Source: Reichenbachiella agarivorans (GTDB lineage: Bacteria; Bacteroidota; Bacteroidia; Cytophagales; Cyclobacteriaceae). Taken from it: a stretch of 64,000 nt of DNA. Position numbers and translations under genes: made by a program. The notes beneath the pieces were generated by a model. That model made no database searches. It worked only from the letters and a program-made list of their open reading frames with translations, and had not been told where the DNA came from. The stretch is taken from positions 4,061,501-4,125,500 of the forward strand of contig NZ_CP106679.1 of assembly GCF_025502585.1 (NCBI RefSeq), written 5' to 3'. Shown in pieces: positions 1-10,734 of this stretch (position 1 is its first letter; the number at the start of each line of letters is the position of its first letter).

Positions 1-180
1 ATGAAACTGACCTTTGTAGTTAGAGATGGCATCCAGCTGCCCATCATGACTGATGTGGGCGTAACTGATCGCTTCCAGCTGTGCATCTATTATTCGGAAG
101 CTCGTTAGACTTGATTGAGCGGCAGCACTCCATGTATGGACAATGAGTAATATTAGCAGGCTGATTTGGTTGGTTTTCAT
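1..180 (-). CDS. Secreted protein with CarboxypepD_reg-like domain (5' part only)
   Basis: The gene starts at 180 and runs off the left edge, so only the first 60 residues are visible. Residues 1-21 form a Sec signal peptide (KTN basic start, LLILLIV core, AAAQ end). The following segment has the pattern of a carboxypeptidase-regulatory-like beta-sandwich: a strand with LEAISYAHI, a turn with DGQLDAISN and a YKGQF strand. In Bacteroidota this domain commonly sits at the N terminus of outer-membrane or cell-surface proteins. It lies 93 bp downstream of the thioredoxin-like lipoprotein on the same strand and may be cotranscribed. The full protein class cannot be told from this fragment. Confidence 0.7.
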   Translation of the reverse strand, partial: MKTNQISLLILLIVHTWSAAAQSSLTSFRIIDAQLEAISYAHISHDGQLDAISNYKGQFH

Positions 181-273
181 AGAGGGAAAATAAAACTAAT
201 TTTGATTAATCTCCTAACATGAAAACCCTCTGCCTGCATTATCAAAATCTTGTTCTAAAAACGAAGCGAATCA

Positions 274-1203
274 TCACTGAGACCCACGGAGTATTTGATC
301 TGGGTTGACGTGGATCTTTTCGATTTGTCCTTGTTCATCAAATAATATCCCTTCAGCATAAGCATACAGATCAAATGCTCCGAAAAAGTCAGCATCTTCA
401 GGAACTATTGCATGTTCATCAATCCCAAACCTGCTCAAAAATTGACGATTCCTTTCCACGGGAAGCCTTTGACCATGAGCCACAAATCTTACAGCCACAT
501 CACCGCAAGATTCATTCAATTCTTTCAGTTTAGGAATCGCCTTTATACATGGTCGGCAAGTATTGGAATAGTGATAGATATAAGTCTTCTTTCCCGTGAC
601 GACCAAGTCATTTCCTTCTATGATACTTTGTGTAAAGGTGTCTTTGAAGGTATATCTAGAAATATCAAATGAGAAGTCTATCACATCAACCAAAGTTGAT
701 GGATCATCTACTGGGGTGACCTCTACTTCGAGACCATCTTCAGAGATTGCGGACAATCTAAAGACGCGCCCATCTACATTGACAGATATATCATTGCCCA
801 TCATTCGTTCCAACCCAGTTATAATCGTCAGCAAGGAATCTGTATTCTGTGGGACAATAAATAATCTATCAACATCTACATCAGTGTATTTGCCATTGTT
901 ATTGTAATCCAATAATGCAATCTTGAAATTAACTCCATACGGATTTTCAAATATACCACCCCGAAAACCCATGACATTCACCTTTGGCCTCTCTCCGTCT
1001 ATCAAGCCATTCATTTCAAAACTCAAGGTCTGACAATCCGACATAATCGAATCACTATCCCACCTGATACCAGCAGCCAACATAAAACTAGGCTTGAGTG
1101 TAATGTTTTTTAAACACTCATCCATCTCGACCTTGTACACTTCAGAGCGATCACAAGCAGTCATCGCAAAGACAATAAATAGTCCCAGAATTTTACACTT
1201 CAT
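274..1203 (-). CDS. TlpA-like thioredoxin-fold lipoprotein
   Basis: This 309-residue protein begins with a lipoprotein signal peptide; the lipobox MTAC puts the lipidated Cys near residue 17. The C-terminal third carries a thioredoxin fold with the redox motif CRPC preceded by YHYSNT, as in TlpA/ResA-type periplasmic thiol-disulfide proteins. The N-terminal half is not a family I recognise; it contains a DYNNNGKYTD loop that resembles a calcium-binding loop. The protein probably faces the periplasm and reduces or forms disulfides. The gene lies just downstream of the IS3 element, and without that insertion its start would lie about 20 bp after the stop of the double-glycine peptide gene. A role in redox handling of that cysteine-containing peptide is therefore possible, but this is inference. 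Confidence 0.8.
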   Translation of the reverse strand: MKCKILGLFIVFAMTACDRSEVYKVEMDECLKNITLKPSFMLAAGIRWDSDSIMSDCQTLSFEMNGLIDGERPKVNVMGFRGGIFENPYGVNFKIALLDYNNNGKYTDVDVDRLFIVPQNTDSLLTIITGLERMMGNDISVNVDGRVFRLSAISEDGLEVEVTPVDDPSTLVDVIDFSFDISRYTFKDTFTQSIIEGNDLVVTGKKTYIYHYSNTCRPCIKAIPKLKELNESCGDVAVRFVAHGQRLPVERNRQFLSRFGIDEHAIVPEDADFFGAFDLYAYAEGILFDEQGQIEKIHVNPDQILRGSQ

Positions 1204-1218
1204 ATTCAGTATTACTAT

Positions 1219-1235
1219 TTAGTGTGAGGGTAGAT
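1219..1235 (+). repeat. IS3 inverted repeat, orfB-side end
   Basis: The sequence TTAGTGTGAGGGTAGAT is the reverse complement of 2502-2518. A further imperfect match (CTTGCAACA here, CTTGCTACA at the other end) continues inward after a short gap. Confidence 0.85.
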
Positions 1236-1264
1236 GGACTTGCAACAAAAAAGTGGACAAATAG

Positions 1265-2125
1265 TTAAGCGCATTTTGAATAATTATCTTCCCCAAATTC
1301 ATCGGGTGTTTTATAGCCTAGATAGGCATGTTTCCTTTTTCTATTGTACCAAACTTCAATGAATTCAAATATTTGAGTTTTAGCTTGAAGGATACTGTAG
1401 TAATTGACATGGCTGACCATTTCAGACTTGAGTATTTTGAAAAAGCTTTCAGCAACAGCATTGTCCCAACAATTCCCTTTTCTGCTCATGCTCTGCTTGA
1501 CTCCCTCTCGCTTGAGATGATCAGAAAAAGCATACGCAGCATATTGCACGCCTCGATCTGAATGAAATAACAAGGCTTTAGTAATAGGTCTGTTTTTGAT
1601 TGCCATTTTCCATGCAGCTAATACAGTAGCCTGTGTGGTCATCGTCGTGCTTAGTGACCAACCCACGATCTTTCGGTCGTACAAATCCATGACAATAGTG
1701 AGGTACAACCATCCTTGCTTTGTGGGAATGTAGGTGATGTCAGACACCCATTTTTGCCCTGGGCCTTCCGCATGAAAATCCCTATTCAAGTGGTTTTCAG
1801 CTAATGGGAATGAATGTTTAGAATCAGTAGTAACACCTCTGAATTTCTTGACCACAATACTTCTAATGCCTTCTGCACGCATGATTCTTGCCACTCTCTG
1901 CCTGGAAACTTTCCATCCCATATCCTGCAGGTCATCTGTGACTTTAGGGCTTCCATACCTTTGTTTACTGCTAAGATGAACCTTTTTGATGTCCTCCATG
2001 AGCTGTTTCCTTTGTTTATACCTTTTGGAAGGCTTGTGATGTAACCAACGATAGTAGCCGCTCCGACTTACCTTGAATACTCGACACATCTTCTCAACGG
2101 AATGTTTATCGTGGTTTGCCTTCAT
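1265..2125 (-). CDS. IS3-family transposase OrfB (DDE integrase domain)
   Basis: This 286-residue protein has an N-terminal HTH_21-like region (SRSGYYRWL) followed by an rve integrase core. The catalytic triad is visible as the Asp of WVSDITYI, the Asp of FHSDRGVQY and the Glu of NAVAESFFK. The length and the YNRKRKHAYLGYKTP tail are typical of full-length IS3 OrfB. The annotated ATG overlaps the orfA stop as ATGA. In this family the functional product is usually an OrfAB fusion made by a -1 frameshift, and the orfB frame stays open upstream to the slippery site, which supports that here. Confidence 0.93.
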   Translation of the reverse strand: MKANHDKHSVEKMCRVFKVSRSGYYRWLHHKPSKRYKQRKQLMEDIKKVHLSSKQRYGSPKVTDDLQDMGWKVSRQRVARIMRAEGIRSIVVKKFRGVTTDSKHSFPLAENHLNRDFHAEGPGQKWVSDITYIPTKQGWLYLTIVMDLYDRKIVGWSLSTTMTTQATVLAAWKMAIKNRPITKALLFHSDRGVQYAAYAFSDHLKREGVKQSMSRKGNCWDNAVAESFFKILKSEMVSHVNYYSILQAKTQIFEFIEVWYNRKRKHAYLGYKTPDEFGEDNYSKCA

Positions 2126-2442
2126 GAAGAAGAAAACTTCCCGTCGTTCTTGGAGAAGATGCTCACCGCCTTTTTTAGGATATCCCTTTCTTCCTGGGCA
2201 TCTAGGAGCGCTTTGCGTAGTCTGGCTATCTCTTTTTGTTCATCAGTCATATTTGTGTTTCCCTGTCCAGAAAAACTCCCTTCCTGATATTGTTCATGTT
2301 CTCGTCTCCACCGTCTGACTAGGTCTGGTTTGATCCCCAGCTCCTCGGCTACTTCTTTGGTAGGCTTTCCTGATGAAACCAGGTTAACTACCATCATTTT
2401 AAACTCCTTATCGAAGTTCCTCCTTTCTCTTTTCATATGCAA
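2122..2442 (-). CDS. IS3-family transposase OrfA (HTH protein)
   Basis: This 106-residue protein has a homeodomain-like HTH_Tnp_1 region (residues about 5-50, KEVAEELGIKPDLVRRW) followed by a leucine-zipper-like coiled coil (EIARLRKALLDAQEERDILKKA). It binds the IS ends and dimerises, and acts as regulator and DNA-binding part of the transposase. Translation probably starts at one of two close Met codons (MHMKRERR). It ends in frame after the slippery site, overlapping orfB by 4 nt. Confidence 0.92.
   Translation of the reverse strand: MHMKRERRNFDKEFKMMVVNLVSSGKPTKEVAEELGIKPDLVRRWRREHEQYQEGSFSGQGNTNMTDEQKEIARLRKALLDAQEERDILKKAVSIFSKNDGKFSSS
2170..2176 (-). other. Programmed -1 frameshift site of the IS3 element
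   Basis: On the minus strand the sequence reads A AAA AAG in the orfA frame (codons CTA AAA AAG), the canonical IS3 slippery heptamer. After a -1 slip the frame runs through without a stop into orfB, giving an OrfAB fusion. Confidence 0.8.
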
Positions 2443-2501
2443 TAAATTTAACTCCTACGAGCTTAACTTACTGTCTCTTCAAATGTAGCAAGTTCAAGAA
2501 A

Positions 2502-2518
2502 ATCTACCCTCACACTAA
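2502..2518 (-). repeat. IS3 inverted repeat, orfA-side end
   Basis: This 17-bp arm is the partner of 1219-1235. It ends only 1 bp from the TAA stop codon of the double-glycine peptide gene (2520-2522). Confidence 0.85.
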
Positions 2519-2519
2519 C

Positions 2520-2681
2520 TTAACATTCATTTCCAATACTCGTGTAGCATGCACCCGTTTCGGAGTTCCACCAAACCATACCACAAACATCATCCCATAT
2601 TTTGGCAAAATATCCTCCCTGAGTTTTTGTCATTTCATCTTGTCTCATCTCTATAAGACCCAATTCATTTAAATTTTCCAT
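2520..2681 (-). CDS. Double-glycine leader peptide (bacteriocin/natural-product precursor candidate)
   Basis: This 53-codon frame (ATG 2681-2679, TAA 2522-2520) reads as a 23-residue leader, rich in Leu, Glu and Met and ending TKTQGG, followed by a 30-residue core. The leader pattern (NLNELGL, then an EM pair before GG) matches double-glycine leaders cleaved by C39-peptidase ABC exporters, including the Bacteroidota GG precursor type. The core contains Cys at 33, 45 and 53 and Trp at 29, 37 and 38. It lies 61 bp downstream of the HTH gene, in the same direction as a complete C39-ABC/HlyD export pair, which is strong context. The IS3 inverted repeat begins 1 bp after the stop. I cannot exclude that the insertion altered the C terminus; the final Cys immediately before the stop is notable. 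The activity (bacteriocin, signal or other) is unknown. Confidence 0.75.
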   Translation of the reverse strand: MENLNELGLIEMRQDEMTKTQGGYFAKIWDDVCGMVWWNSETGACYTSIGNEC

Positions 2682-2742
2682 TTTGTATTAAAATTTAAGT
2701 TAGACCTGCTCTTAGTTTGGGTGGCAGGAGACACCTTTTATG

Positions 2743-3075
2743 CTAGCATAGCCCTAAGGTAATCCCGCTCCGTCCAGAAAAAAGTACGGAAGGAAAAACC
2801 TGCCTACCTCCGTATAATTTTTCACTTTCATCTTCTCTAAGCACACGCAAGGAAAACTCAATTTCCAAAGCTTCTTGTCTTTCGAATCGAAAACTTCTCG
2901 CAGTCCTGTCATAAACAACATTCAGCCCCCAGACCTTCATCATATCTATCATTTCGTAGAGTTTGCTACGGCTTACTCCCAGACGATTTGCTAGTTCATC
3001 AGGCGAACCTGTTCTTTCCTGAAGGATGAGTTTGTTGATCAGTTGTAGATTTTCTATCTGTTTGATGAAATTCAT
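2743..3075 (-). CDS. Small HTH protein of the peptide-export operon
   Basis: This 110-residue protein has an N-terminal winged-helix domain of the HTH_11/DeoR-like type: SPDELANRLGVSRSKLYEMIDMM is a clear helix-turn-helix, followed by a wing around VVYDRTARSFRFE. Similar short HTH proteins are common beside leader-peptide and C39 transporter genes in Bacteroidota. Its ATG overlaps the transporter stop (ATGA, 3075-3072), so it is translationally coupled to export and is likely the local regulator. The C-terminal 25 residues do not look like part of the HTH fold. The protein has no sensor domain. Confidence 0.8.
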   Translation of the reverse strand: MNFIKQIENLQLINKLILQERTGSPDELANRLGVSRSKLYEMIDMMKVWGLNVVYDRTARSFRFERQEALEIEFSLRVLREDESEKLYGGRQVFPSVLFSGRSGITLGLC

Positions 3076-5255
3076 GAGGGTTGATTTAGGTAAGACTCTG
3101 TATTGATATTCTCCTGTTGCCCCATCAATTGCTGATAGGGTTGATTGGATCGTAAAAGTTCTTCATGGCTGCCGTTGGCGATGACTCGTCCACTCTCTAG
3201 TAGCACGATCTGGTCTGCCATCGTCACGGCATTGAGGCGATGTGAGATCGAGATGACGATCTTGCCCTGATCTCTGAGTCTCAGCATAGTTTTGAGTACA
3301 AATGCTTCAGACTTCTTGTCCAAAGCGGAAGTTGCTTCATCAAAAATCACTACCTCAGGATCGGCATACAATGTCCTGAGTATTGCCAATCGCTGACGCT
3401 GACCAATGGAGAGATTTGTTCCGTTTTCTCCTAAATAGGCAGAAAAACCTCCCTGCAATTCGTTGATAAAATCTAAAACACCCAACTCATGAGCCAGTTG
3501 CACGATTCTTTGGGTATCTGGCTGAAACTCACCCAAGGCGATATTTTCGATCACTGTGCCAGCAAAGAGATCGATCTCCTGTGGCACAATTCCAACCAGG
3601 GCGTTGAGACTGTCTTCATGGATAGCATTGATTTCATAATTACCGATCAGTATCTGACCGCTGTCTATTTTGTAAAGCCTTTTCAGCAAAGAAGCGATGG
3701 TAGATTTGCCCGAGCCGCTCTCTCCTAAAATCAGCATCAGCTTTCCTTTCGGGATCAAAAGGTCTAAATTTTCGAAGACTGTCTTTCTAGTTCCATACCT
3801 GAAATTAACTTTTTCGAAACGAATATCTCCAACCTCTGATGGGAGTATTTCCAATTTATCTTTGTTAGAATCCGTCTCCAAATCCATGATCTCAAACAAG
3901 CGATCCGCTGCTATCATAGCATTTTGATAAGATCTATTCGCTCCTATCAAACTACTGACCGGCCCTGTGAAATATCCTATAATGGCATAAAACGACATGA
4001 GTTCCCCAGGAGAAATATGCTGATCCATCACAAAGCCAGCCCCTACCCAAAGTAAAATAATGGTAAACAAACGAGAGACGGTCAAGGAAGCATTGGTAGA
4101 AAATATAGCATTTTTACCCGATTGGTAAACAGAGCCCAAAAGGTTCACAAAACGAATTTCGGTCTTTAGATTAGCATGAAATCTCATTCCAAACATTTTG
4201 ATTGTTTTGGCGGAGTTGACCGACTCGACCAACTGAGATTCTAACTCAGCAGAATGTTCCATCACTTTCCTCTCCACCTTTTTATTGAATCGATTGGTCA
4301 TCCAGTAGATCAACAGATATACTGGTATTACCAATAACATTACGACGGCAAGTTTCCAATAATAGGTGAACATGAGTACAAATGAAAAAGCGATCACGAA
4401 CAGGTTGATGATTACATCAATGGCTATTTCATTGATAAATGCCCTGATCTTGACCGCATCATTGATCCTGCTAATGATCTCGCCCGTACGCATGGTGTCA
4501 AAAAACCGCTGTGGCAGGGTCAGTAAATGTTTGTAATAGCCCAAGATCAATTTGACATCTATCTGCTGTCCTGTTTTCAACACAAACAAGGATTTCAATG
4601 AATTGATCACAATCTGAACAGCCAGTAGGCACAGCATTGCTACTCCTAAGAGATTCAGTAAGTTCTGATTTTGGCTCGGCAGCACATGATCTACAATTTT
4701 TTGCACATAAATAGCGGTAGTCAACCCAATCAAAGTAAAAACAGCAGCTCCTACGATTGACTGAATAATGATGGAACGATGAGGTCTTATCAAAAACCAA
4801 AACCTACAACCCACTGACACTTTAGTATTAGCGGACTGGAAAGATTCATTGGGCATCATCAATATCAAAACACCAGACCATATTTTGATAAATTCATCTT
4901 TGGAGTAGGTCTCCATTTTGCCTGTTCCAGGATCCATCACCATCACCGTATCTTTGGTTACTTTATAGATCACCACATAGTGATGCAATACTTCTTTGAC
5001 CACTACATGAGCGATAGTCGGCACTGGTATTTTGTCCAGCGCATCTGCTCCTCCTTTGGCACCTTTGGCCGAAAAGCCGAGCTTCTCAGCTGCTTCCACC
5101 ATACCCAAAGCATTTGTACCTTTTTTATCCGTACCGGCTATTTGTCTGATTTTCGAAACGGGTAATTTCAAATCGTAGTGGGCTGCAATAGACGCCAGAC
5201 ATGCTGCACCACAATCTGTAATATCACGCTGTTTTACGAGTGCATCCTTTTTCAT
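3072..5255 (-). CDS. Peptidase C39-containing ABC exporter (SunT/ComA/LagD type)
   Basis: This 727-residue protein has the full architecture of a peptidase-containing ABC transporter. The N-terminal C39 cysteine peptidase (residues 1 to about 130) shows Gln9, Cys15 (DITDCGAACL), His92 and Asp108 in the expected places. A six-helix transmembrane domain spans roughly 155-430. The nucleotide-binding domain follows, with Walker A GESGSGKST, signature LSIGQRQRL and Walker B VVIFDEATSALD. Such proteins cleave leaders after Gly-Gly and export the core across the inner membrane. It overlaps the adaptor gene upstream and the HTH gene downstream by 4 nt each. The obvious substrate is the peptide encoded at 2520-2681. 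Confidence 0.95.
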   Translation of the reverse strand: MKKDALVKQRDITDCGAACLASIAAHYDLKLPVSKIRQIAGTDKKGTNALGMVEAAEKLGFSAKGAKGGADALDKIPVPTIAHVVVKEVLHHYVVIYKVTKDTVMVMDPGTGKMETYSKDEFIKIWSGVLILMMPNESFQSANTKVSVGCRFWFLIRPHRSIIIQSIVGAAVFTLIGLTTAIYVQKIVDHVLPSQNQNLLNLLGVAMLCLLAVQIVINSLKSLFVLKTGQQIDVKLILGYYKHLLTLPQRFFDTMRTGEIISRINDAVKIRAFINEIAIDVIINLFVIAFSFVLMFTYYWKLAVVMLLVIPVYLLIYWMTNRFNKKVERKVMEHSAELESQLVESVNSAKTIKMFGMRFHANLKTEIRFVNLLGSVYQSGKNAIFSTNASLTVSRLFTIILLWVGAGFVMDQHISPGELMSFYAIIGYFTGPVSSLIGANRSYQNAMIAADRLFEIMDLETDSNKDKLEILPSEVGDIRFEKVNFRYGTRKTVFENLDLLIPKGKLMLILGESGSGKSTIASLLKRLYKIDSGQILIGNYEINAIHEDSLNALVGIVPQEIDLFAGTVIENIALGEFQPDTQRIVQLAHELGVLDFINELQGGFSAYLGENGTNLSIGQRQRLAILRTLYADPEVVIFDEATSALDKKSEAFVLKTMLRLRDQGKIVISISHRLNAVTMADQIVLLESGRVIANGSHEELLRSNQPYQQLMGQQENINTESYLNQPS

Positions 5256-6424
5256 TTGGCTGATAGTTGGTTGGTTCTTACTTGGGGATTGACCAGATTA
5301 TCTGCTTTGTCATAAAGCAATTGAAACAAGGTTCTCTCCGTTAAATAGAAATTACTTTGAAAGGTCATTCCCTTTTTTACTTTCCCAACCACGCCATTGG
5401 CTAAAGAAAGGGTTTGCTCATGAAGCTTACTTTTTACAATGAAATAGGCTTGTCCATCCTCAGAAAAGTACACATCATCTGATATTTCGATAATTTGTCC
5501 CTTCAGTCCTCCCCATTCGTTGAAATTGAAAGCGTCAATTCTAAAATAACCTTCTTGTCCCAATTGAAGCATTCCTATATCACTAGGAGACACAAAACAT
5601 GATGCCACTAACTCATCATCAGGGGATATCTCGCCCAATTCTGACCCAGCATGCAAGTATTGCCCTATTTGGAGCGGAGTAATATTTTGCAAATTGCCTG
5701 ACGTACTAGATAATATGGAATAATTGACAAGCTGATCTTTTAGCTGTGACAACTGGATATTTAATTGTCTGCTCTCTTCTTTAAAATTGATGATTTGCTG
5801 TTGCCATTCTGTTTTCTTACCATCCTGATACAACCTTGAGTCCATTACCGCTTGATCCAATTCAGTCTGAATCTCATCAAATTCTTTTTGTGATATAATA
5901 CCTTTTTCGTACAACGCTTTTTGTATGTCAAATCTCTTTTGTGTACTACCTAATAGACTATTGGACTTTTCAGTCTGCCCTATAAACTCAACATATTCTA
6001 GTTGGTAACGGTCACTTCTTATTAATCGACTGGCACTTGTCTGATCAGACAACAATGCTAAATCTTGGATATATTGATCAAGTTGAGACTTTCTAGTGCC
6101 TATTCTATCGACTTCAGAGATGATCACCCTGTCATCAAATCTCACCAAGGTATCGCCCTTTTTCACATTGAGATTCTCTTCTAAGCTCGAAAAGACCACT
6201 CTTGCGGTCACAGGTGCTTGTATCGAATACTTTTTACCCATAGAAGTAATTCTTCCTGACACAGACTCTATGACATCCACAGATACCAATGGTAAAATCA
6301 CGAGAAATATGAGTAGGCAACTGAGTAGGACAATGTATATCCTGTTGGTGGGGCGGTTAATTTTGAAAGTATAATTTTCTACACTCGCTTGGATAAACTC
6401 CTCTGGGAATAGTTCTTTTTTCAT
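5252..6424 (-). CDS. HlyD-family membrane fusion protein of the peptide exporter
   Basis: This 390-residue protein has one N-terminal transmembrane helix (about residues 24-46), then a lipoyl/biotinyl-like beta segment (ITSMGKKYSIQAPV). A long alpha-helical hairpin rich in Gln, Glu and Leu and a beta-barrel half follow. It is the periplasmic adaptor that links the C39 ABC exporter to an outer-membrane channel, which is not encoded here. I chose ATG 6424-6422 (MKKELF); a TTG five codons upstream is possible but less likely. It is the first gene of the operon, and its stop overlaps the exporter start. Confidence 0.9.
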   Translation of the reverse strand: MKKELFPEEFIQASVENYTFKINRPTNRIYIVLLSCLLIFLVILPLVSVDVIESVSGRITSMGKKYSIQAPVTARVVFSSLEENLNVKKGDTLVRFDDRVIISEVDRIGTRKSQLDQYIQDLALLSDQTSASRLIRSDRYQLEYVEFIGQTEKSNSLLGSTQKRFDIQKALYEKGIISQKEFDEIQTELDQAVMDSRLYQDGKKTEWQQQIINFKEESRQLNIQLSQLKDQLVNYSILSSTSGNLQNITPLQIGQYLHAGSELGEISPDDELVASCFVSPSDIGMLQLGQEGYFRIDAFNFNEWGGLKGQIIEISDDVYFSEDGQAYFIVKSKLHEQTLSLANGVVGKVKKGMTFQSNFYLTERTLFQLLYDKADNLVNPQVRTNQLSAK

Positions 6425-6763
6425 GGCTGGTTGGTTCAACGACTATTGCTAATGAGATAAGAATCAAAATTCTTTATCTACCATTTTTGCTTTTAACAGT
6501 TTGATTGTTGGTACCCACAATATTTATATAAAAATGAACTTTTCAAAATATTAATTCGCCTTTTAAACATATACCTACACCTAATTTGGCGTAAAATTCA
6601 TGATATATAAAACAACCCACTCTTCAACTTCTCTAAAGTCGAACCACGATCATAGAATTCTCAATCCATAACCAACACCTCAAATCTGATTTTTTAAATC
6701 CAAAAACAGGTTTAGCCTGTTGTCTCATCCCACAATTTAATACTTTAGCGAAAAAATCGCTGC
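6425..6763. other. Divergent intergenic region between the peptide-export operon and rsmE
   Basis: This AT-rich stretch must hold the promoters of both divergent units. Two small inverted repeats lie near the rsmE start: AACAGG/CCTGTT around 6705-6722, and AGCGA/TCGCT at 6747-6761 only 2 bp before the rsmE ATG. No further leader-peptide frame was found on the minus strand here. I see nothing else I can support. Confidence 0.5.
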
Positions 6764-7468
6764 ATGAACTACTACTACCATCCTGATCCAGAATCCAAAC
6801 CCGTGCTCAACGGAGAGGAATCAATGCATGCTGTCAAGGTGTTGCGAAAAAAGGAAGGGGATGAGATTCTCATCATGGATGGAAAAGGTGGAAAGTACAA
6901 AGCAGAAATCACCGATGCGAACTTTAGAAAATGCAGCTTCAAAATCACACAAAAGAAGCTGATTGACAAACGACCGCACACCATTCATCTGGCCATTGCC
7001 CCTACCAAAAACATAGATCGTCTGGAGTGGTTCGTGGAGAAAGCCTGCGAACTGGGAGTCGATCAGATCACCATCCTGCTCACCAAACGCACCGAAAGAA
7101 AAAAAATCAACCTAGAGAGAATCGAAAAGAAAGCGATCTCAGCGATGAAGCAATCCAAGAACTTTTGGAAATGCCAAATCAATGACCTCATTGCCTTTGA
7201 TCAGTTTGTATCTTCACCCGCTACCAATACACAACAAAGCTACATAGCCTATGCAGAGACAGGTCACGAGTCCTCTCTCCACCAATTGCTGCAGCCCAAC
7301 AAAGAGACCCTCATCATGATAGGCCCAGAGGGGGATTTCACCTCAGAAGAAGTCCAACTGGCCGTCAAGCACGGCTCGGTGGCGGTCAACCTTGGTGCGA
7401 GCATCCTCAGGACAGAGACCGCTGGTGTGATTGCCGTCCATACTTTCAACTTGGTCAATGGCTTTTGA
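6764..7468 (+). CDS. rsmE: 16S rRNA (uracil-1498-N3)-methyltransferase RsmE
   Basis: This 234-residue protein is typical of RsmE. It has an N-terminal PUA-like RNA-binding domain (HAVKVLRKKEGDEI) and a C-terminal SPOUT methyltransferase knot. The signature segments are LIMIGPEGDFTSEE and LGASILRTETA, which form the SAM-binding knot. RsmE methylates U1498 of 16S rRNA in the cytoplasm. The gene is monocistronic or leads a short plus-strand group with the cyclophilin gene 169 bp downstream. Confidence 0.96.
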   Translation: MNYYYHPDPESKPVLNGEESMHAVKVLRKKEGDEILIMDGKGGKYKAEITDANFRKCSFKITQKKLIDKRPHTIHLAIAPTKNIDRLEWFVEKACELGVDQITILLTKRTERKKINLERIEKKAISAMKQSKNFWKCQINDLIAFDQFVSSPATNTQQSYIAYAETGHESSLHQLLQPNKETLIMIGPEGDFTSEEVQLAVKHGSVAVNLGASILRTETAGVIAVHTFNLVNGF

Positions 7469-7637
7469 GAATAGTTGATTGCAAATGGTTAATAGAAAAT
7501 AGTTGAGTCGTTAATAGTATTTGCATGCGCCATTAAATTCGTTGTTCACTATGGACTATTGACTAATCACTGTCATCAAAATTCCTGTTTTAGCAAAAAG
7601 CACTTAGCTTTGCTCCTCAATTTATTTAAAGAACAAG
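7469..7637. repeat. AT-rich intergenic repeat of GTTAATAG/ACTATTGACTA type
   Basis: Between rsmE and the cyclophilin gene lie several copies of GTTAATAG-like and ACTATGGACTATTGACTA-like words, a simple inverted and direct repeat style often seen between Bacteroidota genes. There is no coding potential. Confidence 0.4.
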
Positions 7638-8072
7638 ATGAAAGCAGAAATCCACACTTCAAAAGGTGTCATGAAGATTGAATTCTTCGAAAAAGATGCA
7701 CCCAAAGCAGTTAAAAACTTCACTGACTTAGCTAAAAAAGGATATTACGACGGCCTTACTTTTCATAGAGTGATCCCTAATTTCATGGTGCAAGGTGGAT
7801 GTCCTGACGGCACTGGTGCTGGTGGGCCAGGTTACACCATCGATTGTGAATTGACTGGCGACAATCAGTATCATGATAGAGGCGTGTTATCAATGGCTCA
7901 TGCAGGTAGAAATACTGGTGGTTCACAATTTTTCATCTGCCACAACAGAGAAAACACTTCTCACTTAGATCGAAACCATACAGTATTTGGCAAAGTGGTA
8001 GAAGGGGTTGATTTGGTAGATGGCATCAGACAAGGTGATGTGATGACCAAGGTAGTCGTGACAGAAGATTAA
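7638..8072 (+). CDS. Cyclophilin-type peptidyl-prolyl cis-trans isomerase
   Basis: This 144-residue protein is a minimal single-domain cyclophilin. Characteristic segments are FHRVIPNFMVQGGCPDGTG, which includes the catalytic Arg (FHRV), then LSMAHAGRNTGGSQFFI and LDRNHTVFGKVVEG. It catalyses prolyl isomerisation during protein folding. No signal peptide is present, so it is cytoplasmic, like bacterial PpiB. A strong terminator follows at 8097. Confidence 0.95.
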   Translation: MKAEIHTSKGVMKIEFFEKDAPKAVKNFTDLAKKGYYDGLTFHRVIPNFMVQGGCPDGTGAGGPGYTIDCELTGDNQYHDRGVLSMAHAGRNTGGSQFFICHNRENTSHLDRNHTVFGKVVEGVDLVDGIRQGDVMTKVVVTED

Positions 8073-8096
8073 TCTTTACATAGATACAAGATACGA

Positions 8097-8139
8097 GAGC
8101 CAAGTGTCAAGATACCCGTCTTGATTCTTGGCTCTTTTT
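8097..8139 (+). terminator. Rho-independent terminator after the cyclophilin gene
   Basis: Arms GAGCCAAG (8097-8104) and CTTGGCTC (8127-8134), with an inner TCAAGA/TCTTGA pairing, are followed by TTTTT. Confidence 0.85.
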
Positions 8140-8243
8140 CTATCTTGACTCTAGATGCTCTAGAATACTACTTAATTATCCCGTTCTCAATTGATTAATT
8201 CGAGTTCAGCCTTAACTTAGTCCTCTCAATCAAAACTATATCT

Positions 8244-9134
8244 ATGAAACATCTAAAGATTCTTACAATCATGCTGATAGGCTTTGCATGTCAGCCAAAG
8301 CCTCAAACAGAAACTACTGCAGAAACTACCGAAGACAGTCCTACCATAGGCTTGGTCAAGCTATGGGCATCTGATTCTAGTCTTACTACCAATGAGTCCA
8401 TCATATATCATCCGGGTATGGACGTGTTGTTTGTCTCATGTATAGGAAGCGTGCCTCCAGACAGCATGGACAATGATGGATTCATCGCGCAAGTGTCTCC
8501 AGCCAATGGAGAAGTAATCAACCTCAAATGGGTAGACGGCATATCTGCCCCCAAAGGCATGGGAATCGTGGGCAATAGCTTATTCGTAACCAACATCAAT
8601 GAGGTATTGGAGATAGATATCGAAAAGGCCGAAATCATCAAAAGCTATCCTATCGAAGGTGCAGGATTTCTCAATGATATCTCAGTAGGAGCAGACAGTA
8701 CGGTCTATATCTCAGACACAGGCACCAACAAAATCCACCAAATCAAAAATCAGGAATTAGGTCTTTTTCTTGAATCGGCAGATTTCAAAGGGCCAAATGG
8801 TCTGTTGGTCAAAGGCAATGATCTATTCGTTGCTTCATACCGTGGCAGTGAGGGTAATTTCATAAAGGTAGACATGTCAACCAAAGAATTGACAGTGGTA
8901 GCCGACTCCATTGTCGGTGGTGATGGCATTGTATCTTTGGGAGAGGATTTTATCGTATCTACATGGCCTGGCGAAGTGTATTTAGTCGCAGCAGATGGCA
9001 CCAAAAGTCTCTTGCAAGATACACGTGAGGCAAAAATCAATGCTGCCGACATCTGGTTCATCTCAGACATAAGCATGTTACTCATACCTACTTTCTTCGA
9101 CAATCGAATCGTAGCGTACGGCATAGCAGAGTAA
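8244..9134 (+). CDS. SMP-30/NHL-like beta-propeller lipoprotein
   Basis: This 296-residue protein starts with a lipoprotein signal (lipobox IGFAC, Cys near residue 16) and a short acidic, Thr-rich linker. The rest is a chain of propeller-blade repeats (GAGFLNDISVGADSTVYISDTGTNKIHQI, shortened: FLNDISV, YISDTGTNKI, FKGPNGLLV) typical of SMP-30/gluconolactonase-like or NHL proteins. It probably resides in the outer membrane or periplasm; the ligand or activity is unknown. It stands alone between terminators, so it is not obviously tied to the locus that follows. Confidence 0.75.
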   Translation: MKHLKILTIMLIGFACQPKPQTETTAETTEDSPTIGLVKLWASDSSLTTNESIIYHPGMDVLFVSCIGSVPPDSMDNDGFIAQVSPANGEVINLKWVDGISAPKGMGIVGNSLFVTNINEVLEIDIEKAEIIKSYPIEGAGFLNDISVGADSTVYISDTGTNKIHQIKNQELGLFLESADFKGPNGLLVKGNDLFVASYRGSEGNFIKVDMSTKELTVVADSIVGGDGIVSLGEDFIVSTWPGEVYLVAADGTKSLLQDTREAKINAADIWFISDISMLLIPTFFDNRIVAYGIAE

Positions 9135-9157
9135 ATGGGTGGATAGAAACAAGATTC

Positions 9158-9235
9158 AAGAACCAAGATCCAAGATTATATTGACAGACTGATTTACTAG
9201 TGGGCTAGTTCAATTGCAAAATAGTCTTGGTTCTT
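9158..9235 (+). terminator. Inverted repeat, possible terminator after the propeller lipoprotein
   Basis: Arms AAGAACCAAGA (9158-9168) and TCTTGGTTCTT (9225-9235) are complementary and followed by a T-rich run. The loop is long (56 nt), so termination is less certain than for the other hairpins. Confidence 0.45.
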
Positions 9236-9812
9236 CTATTTTCGACACTTTTCTGATTTGACAGTAAAAATCAAGCATATGAGTTAATTGAGGCTGATTT
9301 CGGTTCAAGACTGCATTTCTCAGAAGATTTTCATTCTTCTACGAATGTTCGACAGGAAGAAGAAAATAAGAGCAGTCTTATCTGCGTGTAGGTATATATA
9401 AAAGCACAGGTAAATATAGAGTCAGGAAAACCATTGGGTCGAGTGCTGATCCTGAAGAAGTTACCGTCTAGTGCACCAAGGGGATAAATGGATTGAAGCA
9501 TATAAAGAGACCTTAAATTTAGATCTAAAGTGATCCTTAGGTCGCGAAACACCAATTTCACCAACACTTGATTGGTATCTGAGGGAGTAATCTAAGCGAC
9601 TCTAGCATTCTGATCGGCAAATACACTTCACTCTCTCATATGTTGGAATGGTGCGTCAAACTTTACTCAAATACCTAAACCTAGGCATTTCACTCCTATA
9701 CATCCATGCGGCACATTCCCTACTTGCGGAAGCCAAAAAAACATGGCTTTTCTCTTGTCAGAACTTTCTAGAATTACCAAAAAATGTGTTTTTCAGCCTT
9801 TCGAAATGAAAA
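9236..9812. other. Non-coding stretch, no supported gene
   Basis: About 0.58 kb with only short open frames. A 78-codon minus-strand frame (9331-9567) has no recognisable motif, no start context and biased composition. The stretch may be a decayed gene, but I cannot name its origin. Confidence 0.5.
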
Positions 9813-9841
9813 GTATCAGTCAGAACCTTTCTGACTGATAC
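9813..9841 (-). terminator. Strong terminator of the AraC-family gene
   Basis: A 13-bp perfect stem, GTATCAGTCAGAA against TTCTGACTGATAC, with a 3-nt loop. On the minus strand it is followed by TTTTC. It lies 20 bp past the stop of the AraC gene. Confidence 0.85.
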
Positions 9842-9861
9842 CAAATAGATTGCCCCACCTA

Positions 9862-10734
9862 TTAATGCCGCCAGATATCCTTGCGGTAGCGGGCGGGACT
9901 GGTGCCGGTGATTTTACTAAATAGCCGAGAGAAGTAGGACAGGTTGGGCAACCCCACTCTATGCGAGATTTCGATCAATGAATAATTGGTGGTAGTCAAT
10001 AACAACTGCGCCCGCTGTATCCTTTTTTGCTGGATGTACTGTATAGGGCGCTGCCCAAACACCTCTACGAATATTTTGGAATAATAATCGACATGCAGGT
10101 GACACTGATCGGCCAGTAGTTCAACATTCAACAGATCTGGTAGATGCTGATCGATATACCGAGCCGAGCGAGCGACGAGCTCGTGCGTCTGGCTACCTTT
10201 ACTAGACTCATAGTTCTCATTGAGGATGAAGCGAGAAAACAGGCTGAGCAAGATGCCTCTAGACTCAAGAATCACCGATGCGGAAAGCTGTTCATTTTTT
10301 TGCAAAAAACTCATGAGCACCGGCTGATTGTCATACACTTTAGGATTGTCATCCACATAGGATCGACCAGGGTTGAGCGCAATATATCGCTGTATCAGTT
10401 GAAGATCCTGATCAGTAGCCTCCACCTCATATACAAACCTATTGATCTGATAAATGGACTGCCCCTCTCCCACTTCCTCCAAAAAACTGAGATAGTACTG
10501 TCCCATGCTGTCGGGACAGCGGTACCTACTGTAAGTGAAACTCGGGATCAAATACATGTGACCAGGCTTGAGTTGCCACTGCTGGTCATGATGGTAAATA
10601 TAGCCTTCTCCCTGATCCACATAATACATCCGACTGAATGGACTAATCACATGGTCGTAGTTCCATCGGCGATCGAGGGATGCATAGCCCGCATTGAGCA
10701 GAGACAAACGAAGCGATTGTAAGGTTTTGTACAT
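9862..10734 (-). CDS. AraC-family transcriptional regulator, divergent from the cytochrome module
   Basis: The 290-residue protein (from MYKTLQ) has an N-terminal cupin-like ligand-binding half (FSRMYYVDQGEGYIYH, LKPGHMYLIPSFTYSRY) and a C-terminal pair of AraC helix-turn-helix motifs ending in the family signature (SYFSRLFSKITGTSPARYRK). I prefer the ATG at 10734; an upstream Met adds 12 hydrophobic residues that do not fit the fold. It faces the plus-strand run beginning at 10891, and the gap between them holds direct repeats at 10792-10824. It is the likely local activator of that run, probably responding to a sugar or sulfated sugar. Confidence 0.9.
   Translation of the reverse strand: MYKTLQSLRLSLLNAGYASLDRRWNYDHVISPFSRMYYVDQGEGYIYHHDQQWQLKPGHMYLIPSFTYSRYRCPDSMGQYYLSFLEEVGEGQSIYQINRFVYEVEATDQDLQLIQRYIALNPGRSYVDDNPKVYDNQPVLMSFLQKNEQLSASVILESRGILLSLFSRFILNENYESSKGSQTHELVARSARYIDQHLPDLLNVELLADQCHLHVDYYSKIFVEVFGQRPIQYIQQKRIQRAQLLLTTTNYSLIEISHRVGLPNLSYFSRLFSKITGTSPARYRKDIWRH

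What the first reader, a model, noticed from the sequence alone, without database searches (positions are those of the whole stretch)
2520..6424. Unannotated double-glycine leader peptide beside a complete C39-ABC/HlyD export operon
Seen: a 53-codon frame with a leader ending TQGG and a 30-residue core with three Cys and three Trp, on the same strand and 61 bp after an HTH gene coupled to a C39 exporter and adaptor. Established: C39 exporters cleave after Gly-Gly. Inference: this is the exporter's substrate, possibly a bacteriocin or signalling peptide of a new core type.
Basis: partly seen in the sequence, partly recalled or inferred. Interest (0 to 1): 0.72.

Follow-up and report, generated by a model that had tools for sequence, protein, structure and literature searches.

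The report
Regulator and peptide share exporter signal
This bacterium carries a small cysteine-rich peptide next to the machine that probably cuts and exports it, and the regulator-like protein encoded beside that machine ends in the same kind of cut-here signal, which suggests that it may itself be a substrate of the exporter.

Summary
In detail: a minus-strand operon encodes HlyD, a C39-ABC exporter, an HTH protein and a 53-codon GG-leader peptide. The frame is real. A 64%-identical relative in one congener directly precedes a homologue of the window's thioredoxin-like lipoprotein; in the window an IS3-type element separates the two. Peptide, C39 exporter and thiol oxidoreductase resemble bacteroidetocin loci. 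The core matched strongly in only 2 of 390 family genomes; most other exporter loci examined carry different GG peptides, so cores appear swapped behind a constant exporter.

The HTH protein itself ends in a C39-type leader plus a short variable tail. This holds for 29 of 32 HTHs found behind the exporter and 24 of 49 further homologues, 18 of these 24 with a C39 gene in the fetched DNA. The segment scores as a leader without counting the glycines. In one genus the tail is under purifying selection, and in 7 of 9 of its genomes it is the only GG candidate found on that strand of the locus.

I infer that the regulator docks on, and is probably cut by, its own exporter. Cleavage was not tested. 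Eight paper searches showed no such description.

The parts
2520..2681 (-). 53-aa GG-leader peptide gene; leader codons 2613-2681, core (30 aa, 3 Cys, 3 Trp) 2523-2612
2682..2742 (-). 61-bp spacer between HTH stop and peptide start, conserved together with the leader DNA in G004 and in three G001 cassettes (a fourth keeps only its 3' part)
   Evidence: alignment A3
2743..3075 (-). HTH protein, 110 aa, weakly similar to several HTH families (BirA-type among them); followed by a GG leader-like segment and a 20-aa tail
2806..2859 (-). leader-like segment of the HTH protein, residues 73-90, EFSLRVLREDESEKLYGG
   Evidence: helix 81-88 in a low-confidence model
2746..2805 (-). C-terminal tail of the HTH protein after GG, residues 91-110, RQVFPSVLFSGRSGITLGLC
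3072..5255 (-). C39 peptidase-ABC exporter, 727 aa (C39 domain residues 6-137, about 4845-5240)
5252..6424 (-). HlyD-type adaptor, 390 aa from ATG 6424 (a TTG at 6439 gives 395 aa)
1235..2497 (-). IS3-type insertion element between peptide and lipoprotein, inside a hairpin-forming spacer; three other full-length copies in the genome at 100% identity. Ends good to a few bases
274..1203 (-). thioredoxin-like protein with CRPC motif and a lipoprotein-like N-terminus (by eye); its homologue in G001 follows the homologous peptide directly

Best explanation
The locus is a peptide-export operon with two proteins bearing C39 leader signals. One is the small Cys-rich peptide: after the leader is cut off behind GG the 30-residue core is exported, and a thioredoxin-like lipoprotein probably sets its disulphide bonds, as proposed for bacteroidetocins; the likely use is antagonism of related bacteria. 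The other is the HTH regulator: its DNA-binding domain is followed by a leader-like helix, GG and a short tail. The C39 domain most likely docks on that segment, cuts after GG and exports the tail, leaving a shortened regulator in the cell, so that exporter supply or activity is reported to transcription of the operon and its peptide cassettes. Shown: sequences, conservation, leader-like composition, selection on the tail in one genus, genomic linkage. Inferred: docking, cleavage, export, DNA binding and the direction of regulation.
For: Order HlyD > C39-ABC > HTH in 32 of 41 loci examined (window, the decayed G004 locus and 39 others, chosen for having HlyD), 33 with an HMM. 29 of those 32 HTHs carry GG (24) or AG (5) at the same place, then 2-34 variable residues. 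A leader profile from 51 separate GG peptides, the two Gly columns left out, ranks the HTH segment first among all windows of its own protein in 25 of 29 and in the top 2 in 29 of 29. Hydrophobic -12 and -4 sit in pockets of the C39 protease LahT, with a helix at -4 to -11, and ComA reads L-12, E-8, L-7 (PMC6363468 passages); the single-sequence model puts a helix at residues 81-88, i.e. -10 to -3 (mean pLDDT 60.8). Identity between HTH pairs drops from domain to leader segment to tail (0.92, 0.67, 0.31 in the closest bin of 17 pairs), as in leader/core precursors. In genus g48 the tail is under purifying selection (pS 0.83/pN 0.087; pS 0.77/pN 0.054), and 7 of 9 loci show no other GG-leader ORF on the operon's strand. 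Tail types recur between genera: LDG type, L056/L084 and L081/L082. GG/AG-tailed HTHs have C39 in the fetched DNA in 18 of 24, tailless ones in 6 of 25 (Fisher p = 5e-4). Peptide-lipoprotein linkage.
Against: No cleavage, export or DNA binding was tested. Position -7, important in LahT, is most often Ser or Ala in HTH segments; E-8 is dispensable in LahT. Five of 29 have AG, not GG. All 3 loci of genus g68 have an HTH that stops before the motif although exporter and GG peptides are present. One tail is 2 residues (L069) and one protein ends exactly at GG (L199), which an exported-peptide model does not explain. Tailless HTHs with a C39 gene in the fetched DNA exist (L154, L162, L167, L203, L210, L215; also L065/L066 paralogues). 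The phylum sample alone shows no significant link (12 of 16 versus 3 of 5, p = 0.60). The search model A1 contains the Gly columns, which favours finding tailed proteins. One g48 genome (G054) has a GG-leader frame elsewhere, so 'only candidate' holds for the locus, not the genome. TIGR01193 scores the exporter at 512.9, under its cut-off 523.85.
Confidence: 0.55

Rival explanations
1. Docking only: the C39 domain binds the leader-like end of the HTH protein and holds it at the membrane, but little or nothing is cut or exported. The regulator senses whether the exporter is free or busy with peptide precursors.
For: The leader segment is kept better than the tail. Tails can be 2 residues (L069) or absent after GG (L199).
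Against: Tails are translated and under purifying selection in genus g48, and tail types recur between genera and in a second family; a pure docking site needs no conserved tail. Gly at -1 is kept in 29 of 29.
Confidence: 0.22
2. The HTH domain is only an unusually large leader: the protein is a natural-product precursor of the Nif11 or nitrile-hydratase kind, the tail is the product, and DNA binding is lost or irrelevant.
For: Leaders related to protein families are known (PMC2887384, title and start of abstract seen). In genus g48 the tail is the only GG candidate found on the operon's strand in 7 of 9 loci.
Against: The HTH domain is the best conserved part (T22, G23, P25, L32, S35, L39 among the invariant columns of 14 sequences) and keeps weak helix-turn-helix profile similarity; tailless homologues exist.
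Confidence: 0.13
3. The HTH-GG end is a relic: cassette shuffling joined HTH 3' ends to leader-coding DNA, and the motif has no function in the HTH protein.
For: In G001 (L047) copies of the HTH 3' end precede some peptide cassettes; L082 and L084 have a second copy of the HTH end apart from the intact HTH gene.
Against: The motif is kept in 29 of 32 loci over many genera and in other families; selection on the tail; tails compared with 111 small GG ORFs matched at E<0.01 only HTH ends, not cores.
Confidence: 0.1
4. The 53-codon peptide is not the exporter's substrate but a chance or decayed frame.
For: The one other genome with a strong core match, G001, has no match to this exporter; G004's exporter is destroyed by a deletion.
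Against: 64% identity with silent-site bias, C39-type leader, adjacency, and conserved partner lipoprotein.
Confidence: 0.05

Closest known systems
Bacteroidetocins (PMC6671954; passages read)
   Same: Bacteroidota; small Cys-containing peptide cleaved after GG, C39-ABC exporter, thiol oxidoreductase gene next to the peptide, proposed there to form disulphides
   Different: There the mature peptide of A and B is 42 aa with 4 Cys and the leader 15-16 aa; here 30 aa with 3 Cys (31 aa with 4 in G001) and a 23-aa leader. That locus has a five-TM protein, and the words HTH and regulator do not occur in the main text (0 hits); here HlyD and an HTH-GG protein
C39/PCAT double-glycine substrates such as those of LahT and ComA (PMC6363468; passages read)
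   Same: Hydrophobic -12 and -4, E-8, GG; helix between -4 and -11
   Different: There the leader is the N-terminal part of a short precursor (recalled); in the HTH protein the leader lies behind a complete HTH domain, and -7 is often Ser/Ala
Nif11 and nitrile-hydratase-related precursors (PMC2887384; only title and start of abstract seen; rest recalled)
   Same: A protein-family-derived N-terminal part in front of a Gly-Gly site and a short variable C-terminus
   Different: Here the N-terminal part is an HTH domain, and I noticed no modifying enzyme next to the window's operon (no dedicated search)
HetC of Nostoc (PMC10986499; passages read)
   Same: A C39-ABC exporter linked to gene regulation; the authors propose that the retained N-terminal piece of a cut substrate could act on a transcriptional regulator
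   Different: The authors found no GG-leader gene near hetC; here the regulator-like protein itself carries the site
FlgM-type exported regulators (recalled, no call)
   Same: Export status would be reported to transcription through a regulator that is itself a substrate
   Different: FlgM is exported whole by a flagellar secretion system; here only a tail would leave

Membership tests
C39 double-glycine substrate (53-aa peptide) | GG leader with hydrophobic -12, E-8, hydrophobic -7, near a C39 exporter | tested here: met
   M-12, E-8, M-7, T-4 (T is the third commonest at -4 in 51 leaders), GG; one gene away from the C39-ABC
C39 double-glycine substrate (53-aa peptide) | cleavage after GG and export | not testable with these tools
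   needs protease assay or mass spectrometry
Bacteroidetocins | small peptide with N-terminal GG leader and at least two Cys | tested here: met
   53 aa, GG at 22-23, 3 Cys
Bacteroidetocins | thiol oxidoreductase near the peptide gene (in most published regions) | tested here: met
   Directly after the peptide in G001; in the window after an IS element
Bacteroidetocins | five-TM protein in the locus | tested here: inconclusive
   None recognised by eye among ORFs of window 1-10000; the published TM protein's sequence was not compared
Bacteroidetocins | sequence similarity of the peptide to bacteroidetocins | not tested
   No bacteroidetocin sequence was at hand; Pfam and NCBIfam show no family at E<=1
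C39 substrate (HTH protein) | leader-like residues before GG, beyond the glycines | tested here: met
   segment ranks 1st of all windows in 25 of 29, the window's HTH included
C39 substrate (HTH protein) | Leu/hydrophobic at -7 | tested here: not met
   Ser in the window; the commonest residues in the set of 29 are Ser (7) and Ala (5)
C39 substrate (HTH protein) | cleavage by a C39 protease | not testable with these tools
   needs purified proteins
HTH transcription regulator | HTH fold | tested here: inconclusive
   Pfam HTH matches, best E 0.0019, all below gathering scores; model shows three helices and two strands at mean pLDDT 60.8
HTH transcription regulator | specific DNA binding | not testable with these tools
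   needs a binding assay

The most novel reading that the evidence does not exclude
A widespread family of Bacteroidota regulators are themselves substrates of the peptide exporter encoded beside them: the C39 domain cuts the DNA-binding protein after GG and exports its tail, so that export feeds back on transcription, and in some genera the tail may be the operon's main secreted signal.
Probability: 0.4. Interest if true: 0.85.

Novelty: new variant of a known kind. Interest (0 to 1): 0.62.

Why it matters
How Gram-negative peptide exporters are wired to gene control is poorly known (my judgement). A regulator that carries the exporter's own cut signal would give a one-protein answer: it would make secretion status readable by transcription, and it would be testable with two purified proteins. 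It would also mean that proteins annotated only as HTH domain-containing beside C39 exporters are overlooked precursors, and it supplies a handle for finding new GG peptides and their swap cassettes in Bacteroidota.

Tried and rejected
Plain reading that the HTH is an ordinary regulator: not kept, because of the GG end.

Idea that the IS truncated the peptide: rejected. The other full-length IS copies match only window 1232/1235 to 2496/2498, and the bases between peptide stop and IS form one arm of a hairpin whose other arm lies on the far side of the IS; G001 has such a hairpin at the same place (z -2.78, 4 of 200 shuffles fold at least as well).

Idea that HTH tails are homologous to downstream cores: tails compared with 111 small GG ORFs gave E<0.01 only against HTH ends. 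Idea that the window's tail belongs to the LDG tail type: not supported (the window is not among the 16 best of 52). By eye it resembles the L051 tail (FPSVLFS).

On checking, two of the weak matches also show a core-like motif (G162, G567), and the third weak one (G054) is another GG-leader frame; the text was mended.

Genome-contig scan with the adaptor found one weak relative of no use. PADLOC hits of HTH and ABC look generic. The solved-structure search with the HTH profile gave only weak hits, BirA among them, mixed with antibody chains. The plasmid search gave three records, of Aureibacter and Persicobacter; one was read. L174 and L175 were fetched and showed no HTH or C39 hit; not analysed further. 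More distant C39-ABC-like genes of G003 and G005 (28-29% identity) were not followed. Papers: eight searches (two of them without hits) listed no title or abstract start describing an HTH protein with a C39 leader; passages of PMC10352776 and PMC8939145 mention HTH genes without such an end. The library lacks most subscription papers and all bioRxiv preprints, so absence is weak.
Full report
WHAT IS THERE. On the minus strand the window holds HlyD (ATG 6424, end 5252), a C39-ABC exporter (5255-3072), an HTH protein (3075-2743) and a 53-codon frame (2681-2520) with leader MENLNELGLIEMRQDEMTKTQGG and core YFAKIWDDVCGMVWWNSETGACYTSIGNEC. Domains are confirmed by Pfam. The exporter scores 512.9 against TIGR01193, just below its cut-off of 523.85. 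No Pfam or NCBIfam family fits the peptide at E<=1.

IS THE PEPTIDE REAL. In G001, one of 8 genus genomes searched (window included), a frame is 64% identical over the whole peptide. Changes favour silent sites: core pS 0.65 and pN 0.26, leader pS 0.46 and pN 0.15. There it sits 46 bases before a thioredoxin-like protein that is 64% identical to the one at window 274-1203. In the window an IS3-type element lies between the two. Three further full-length copies at 100% identity are in the genome. The IS interrupts a hairpin spacer: one arm follows the peptide stop, the other precedes the lipoprotein, and G001 has an intact hairpin there. So peptide and lipoprotein are an older pair, and the finding's range stopped short of it.

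HOW WIDESPREAD IS THE CORE. Of 390 family genomes searched with the two-sequence profile A2, 8 had a match at E<=0.01. The window genome and G001 match strongly over the whole length. G004, G021 and G112 match the leader only. Three are weak (E 0.005-0.009): G567 has WDSATGDCWDLLGN and G162 has YSESGKCQASLGNE, both like WNSETGACYTSIGNE of the window, so the core type may be wider; the G054 match is another GG-leader frame. Of the 41 exporter loci described below, most show other GG-leader ORFs behind the ABC gene; L063, L070, L073, L075, L078, L083, L085, L086 and L087 show no convincing separate one (L087 ends 354 bases after the ABC match). In G004 spacer and leader DNA are conserved but the core differs, and the exporter is destroyed: HlyD residues 1-144 run into ABC residues 568-727. 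In G001 four leader copies share leader DNA (three with the full spacer; one has an in-frame TAG) with different cores, and some are preceded by copies of the HTH 3' end. G001 has no HlyD match at 1e-10, and its ABC matches at 1e-60 start at residue 141 or later, i.e. without C39. The picture is a constant leader plus spacer carrying interchangeable cores, with exporter loss or decay in two congeners.

THE UNEXPECTED PART. HlyD relatives were found in 41 of 196 family genomes, at 47 places. I took 39 stretches from these plus G004; six weaker or fragmentary places were not fetched in this step. With the window that makes 41 loci. The HTH follows the ABC in 32 by tblastn, and in L082 by profile. 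L080 and L087 have an HTH with GG upstream instead. Six loci (L057, L075, L078, L083, L085, L086) have none beside the exporter at that threshold. In 29 of the 32 the HTH ends in a segment like FSLRVLREDESEKLYGG followed by 2 to 34 residues; 24 have GG and 5 AG. The three exceptions are one genus, g68, whose HTH stops before the motif.

IS THE SEGMENT LEADER-LIKE. I built a profile from 51 separate GG-peptide leaders picked by eye (itself a pattern search, so -12, -8 and -4 are favoured there), dropped the two Gly columns and slid it along each HTH; the HTH sites were placed by [GA]G near residue 90 alone. The segment ranks first in 25 of 29 and in the top two in all 29; against shuffles of its own residues it is at p<0.05 in 28 of 29. 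Residues: -12 Leu 17, Ile 9, Val 1, Phe 1, Asp 1; -8 Glu or Asp in 27 of 29; -4 mostly Ile (17). In LahT, -4, -7 and -12 fill hydrophobic pockets and E-8 is dispensable; ComA reads L-12, E-8, L-7 (PMC6363468 passages). Position -7 departs here: Ser and Ala are commonest. A single-sequence AlphaFold2 model (mean pLDDT 60.8, weak) shows three helices, two strands and a helix at residues 81-88, just before the GG at 89-90.

IS THE TAIL A PROTEIN PRODUCT. In genus g48, 10 of 11 genomes have an HTH match. Nine share the HlyD-ABC-HTH order and have related tails in three groups. Within groups the tail is under purifying selection (L176/L177 pS 0.83, pN 0.087; L181/L182 pS 0.77, pN 0.054), and between groups it changes faster than the domain (7 of the 9 were in this computation). 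Sequence after the stop codon is not conserved in L070/L073 (26 of 60 bases). In 7 of these 9 no other GG-leader ORF was found on the HTH's strand in the fetched 17-19 kb; one opposite-strand ORF in L189 met the loose pattern and looks like chance. Two genomes have a second GG peptide. G054 has a GG-leader frame elsewhere in its genome. Tail types recur between genera: an LDG type in L066, L072, L077 and L146 at shuffle p 0.0005, 0.0005, 0.0025 and 0.0005 against a profile from four members of another family, 52 tails tested, so three of the four pass a correction for that number; L056 with L084 (E 0.001) and L081 with L082 (E 1e-4). The window's own tail is not of the LDG type.

CONTROL. HTH homologues fetched: 27 from the class search (of 39 non-window matches at E<=0.001; the 12 weakest were not fetched), one from G003 and 21 new ones from the phylum search (all new matches at E<=1e-8). 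Of the first 28, 8 have GG/AG tails; of the 21, 16 do. A C39 domain is encoded in the fetched DNA in 6 of 8 versus 3 of 20 (p 0.0048) and 12 of 16 versus 3 of 5 (p 0.60); together 18 of 24 versus 6 of 25 (p 5e-4). Fetched lengths differ (4-19 kb), some contigs end early, in L151 the two genes are on opposite strands, and the search profile includes the Gly columns, so this is supportive rather than decisive. A named case: plasmid pAT7 of Aureibacter tunicatorum encodes an HTH protein ending ...MYHINGG plus 17 residues (WP_309943463.1), then TolC, HlyD and C39-ABC in a row.

HOW IT MOST LIKELY WORKS. The peptide: the precursor docks by its leader helix, is cut after GG, exported, and oxidised by the lipoprotein; antibacterial use is inferred from bacteroidetocins, where deleting the thiol oxidoreductase gene attenuates activity (PMC6671954 passages). 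The regulator: same docking and probably cutting, so that the exporter shortens or holds its own regulator; the direction (repressor or activator) is unknown. A related proposal exists for HetC, in which the retained part of a cut substrate would act on a regulator (PMC10986499 passages). Against: AG sites, very short or absent tails (L069, L199), tailless HTHs near C39 genes. The docking-only rival covers the short tails better; the export model covers the selected tails better.

NOVELTY. For the peptide: a new variant of a known kind. For the HTH-GG protein: I saw no description in eight paper searches, a limited library. It is annotated simply as HTH domain-containing protein in pAT7.

Noticed in passing
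L047 4850-12750 (G001): Array of GG-leader cassettes with shared leader DNA, different cores, copies of the HTH 3' end, and hairpin-rich repeats (GAGCATTTGTAATGCGAA..., CAAGTTGAAAACTTG) just before two of the HTH copies; two CarboxypepD_reg-type proteins and a CPBP/Rce1-like membrane protease lie among them.
   Followed up: partly
L048 8319-9207 (G004): HlyD start fused to ABC end by a deletion; HTH and a different-core GG peptide remain.
   Followed up: yes
window 2740-2749: A perfect 10-bp palindrome ATGCTAGCAT overlaps the HTH stop codon and is kept in G004 and two G001 cassettes; possible regulator site.
   Followed up: no
L082, 2715-3393 after the ABC match; L084, about 3120-3200 after it: A second copy of the HTH end with its GG tail lies apart from the intact HTH gene, before further GG peptides.
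   Followed up: partly
L199 (G885) and L069: An HTH protein that ends exactly at GG, and one with only two residues after AG.
   Followed up: no
L066, 3980-6620 after the ABC match; L065: A second, distant C39-type ABC gene (28% identity) in L066 followed by a tailless HTH homologue and a GG peptide with a long leader (MFNQKTKFVMKEL...); like leaders and tailless HTHs in L065.
   Followed up: no
L165 7110 (G003): HTH with GG tail but no C39 gene found in the fetched 15 kb.
   Followed up: no
L142 (G162) and L143 (G567): Frames with a motif like the window's core (YSESGKCQASLGNE, WDSATGDCWDLLGN) outside a clear GG-leader context; possible wider core family.
   Followed up: no
G000 C1 875640, 1635209, 2406318: Three further full-length copies of the IS3-type element at 100% identity, so it probably moved recently.
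   Followed up: yes
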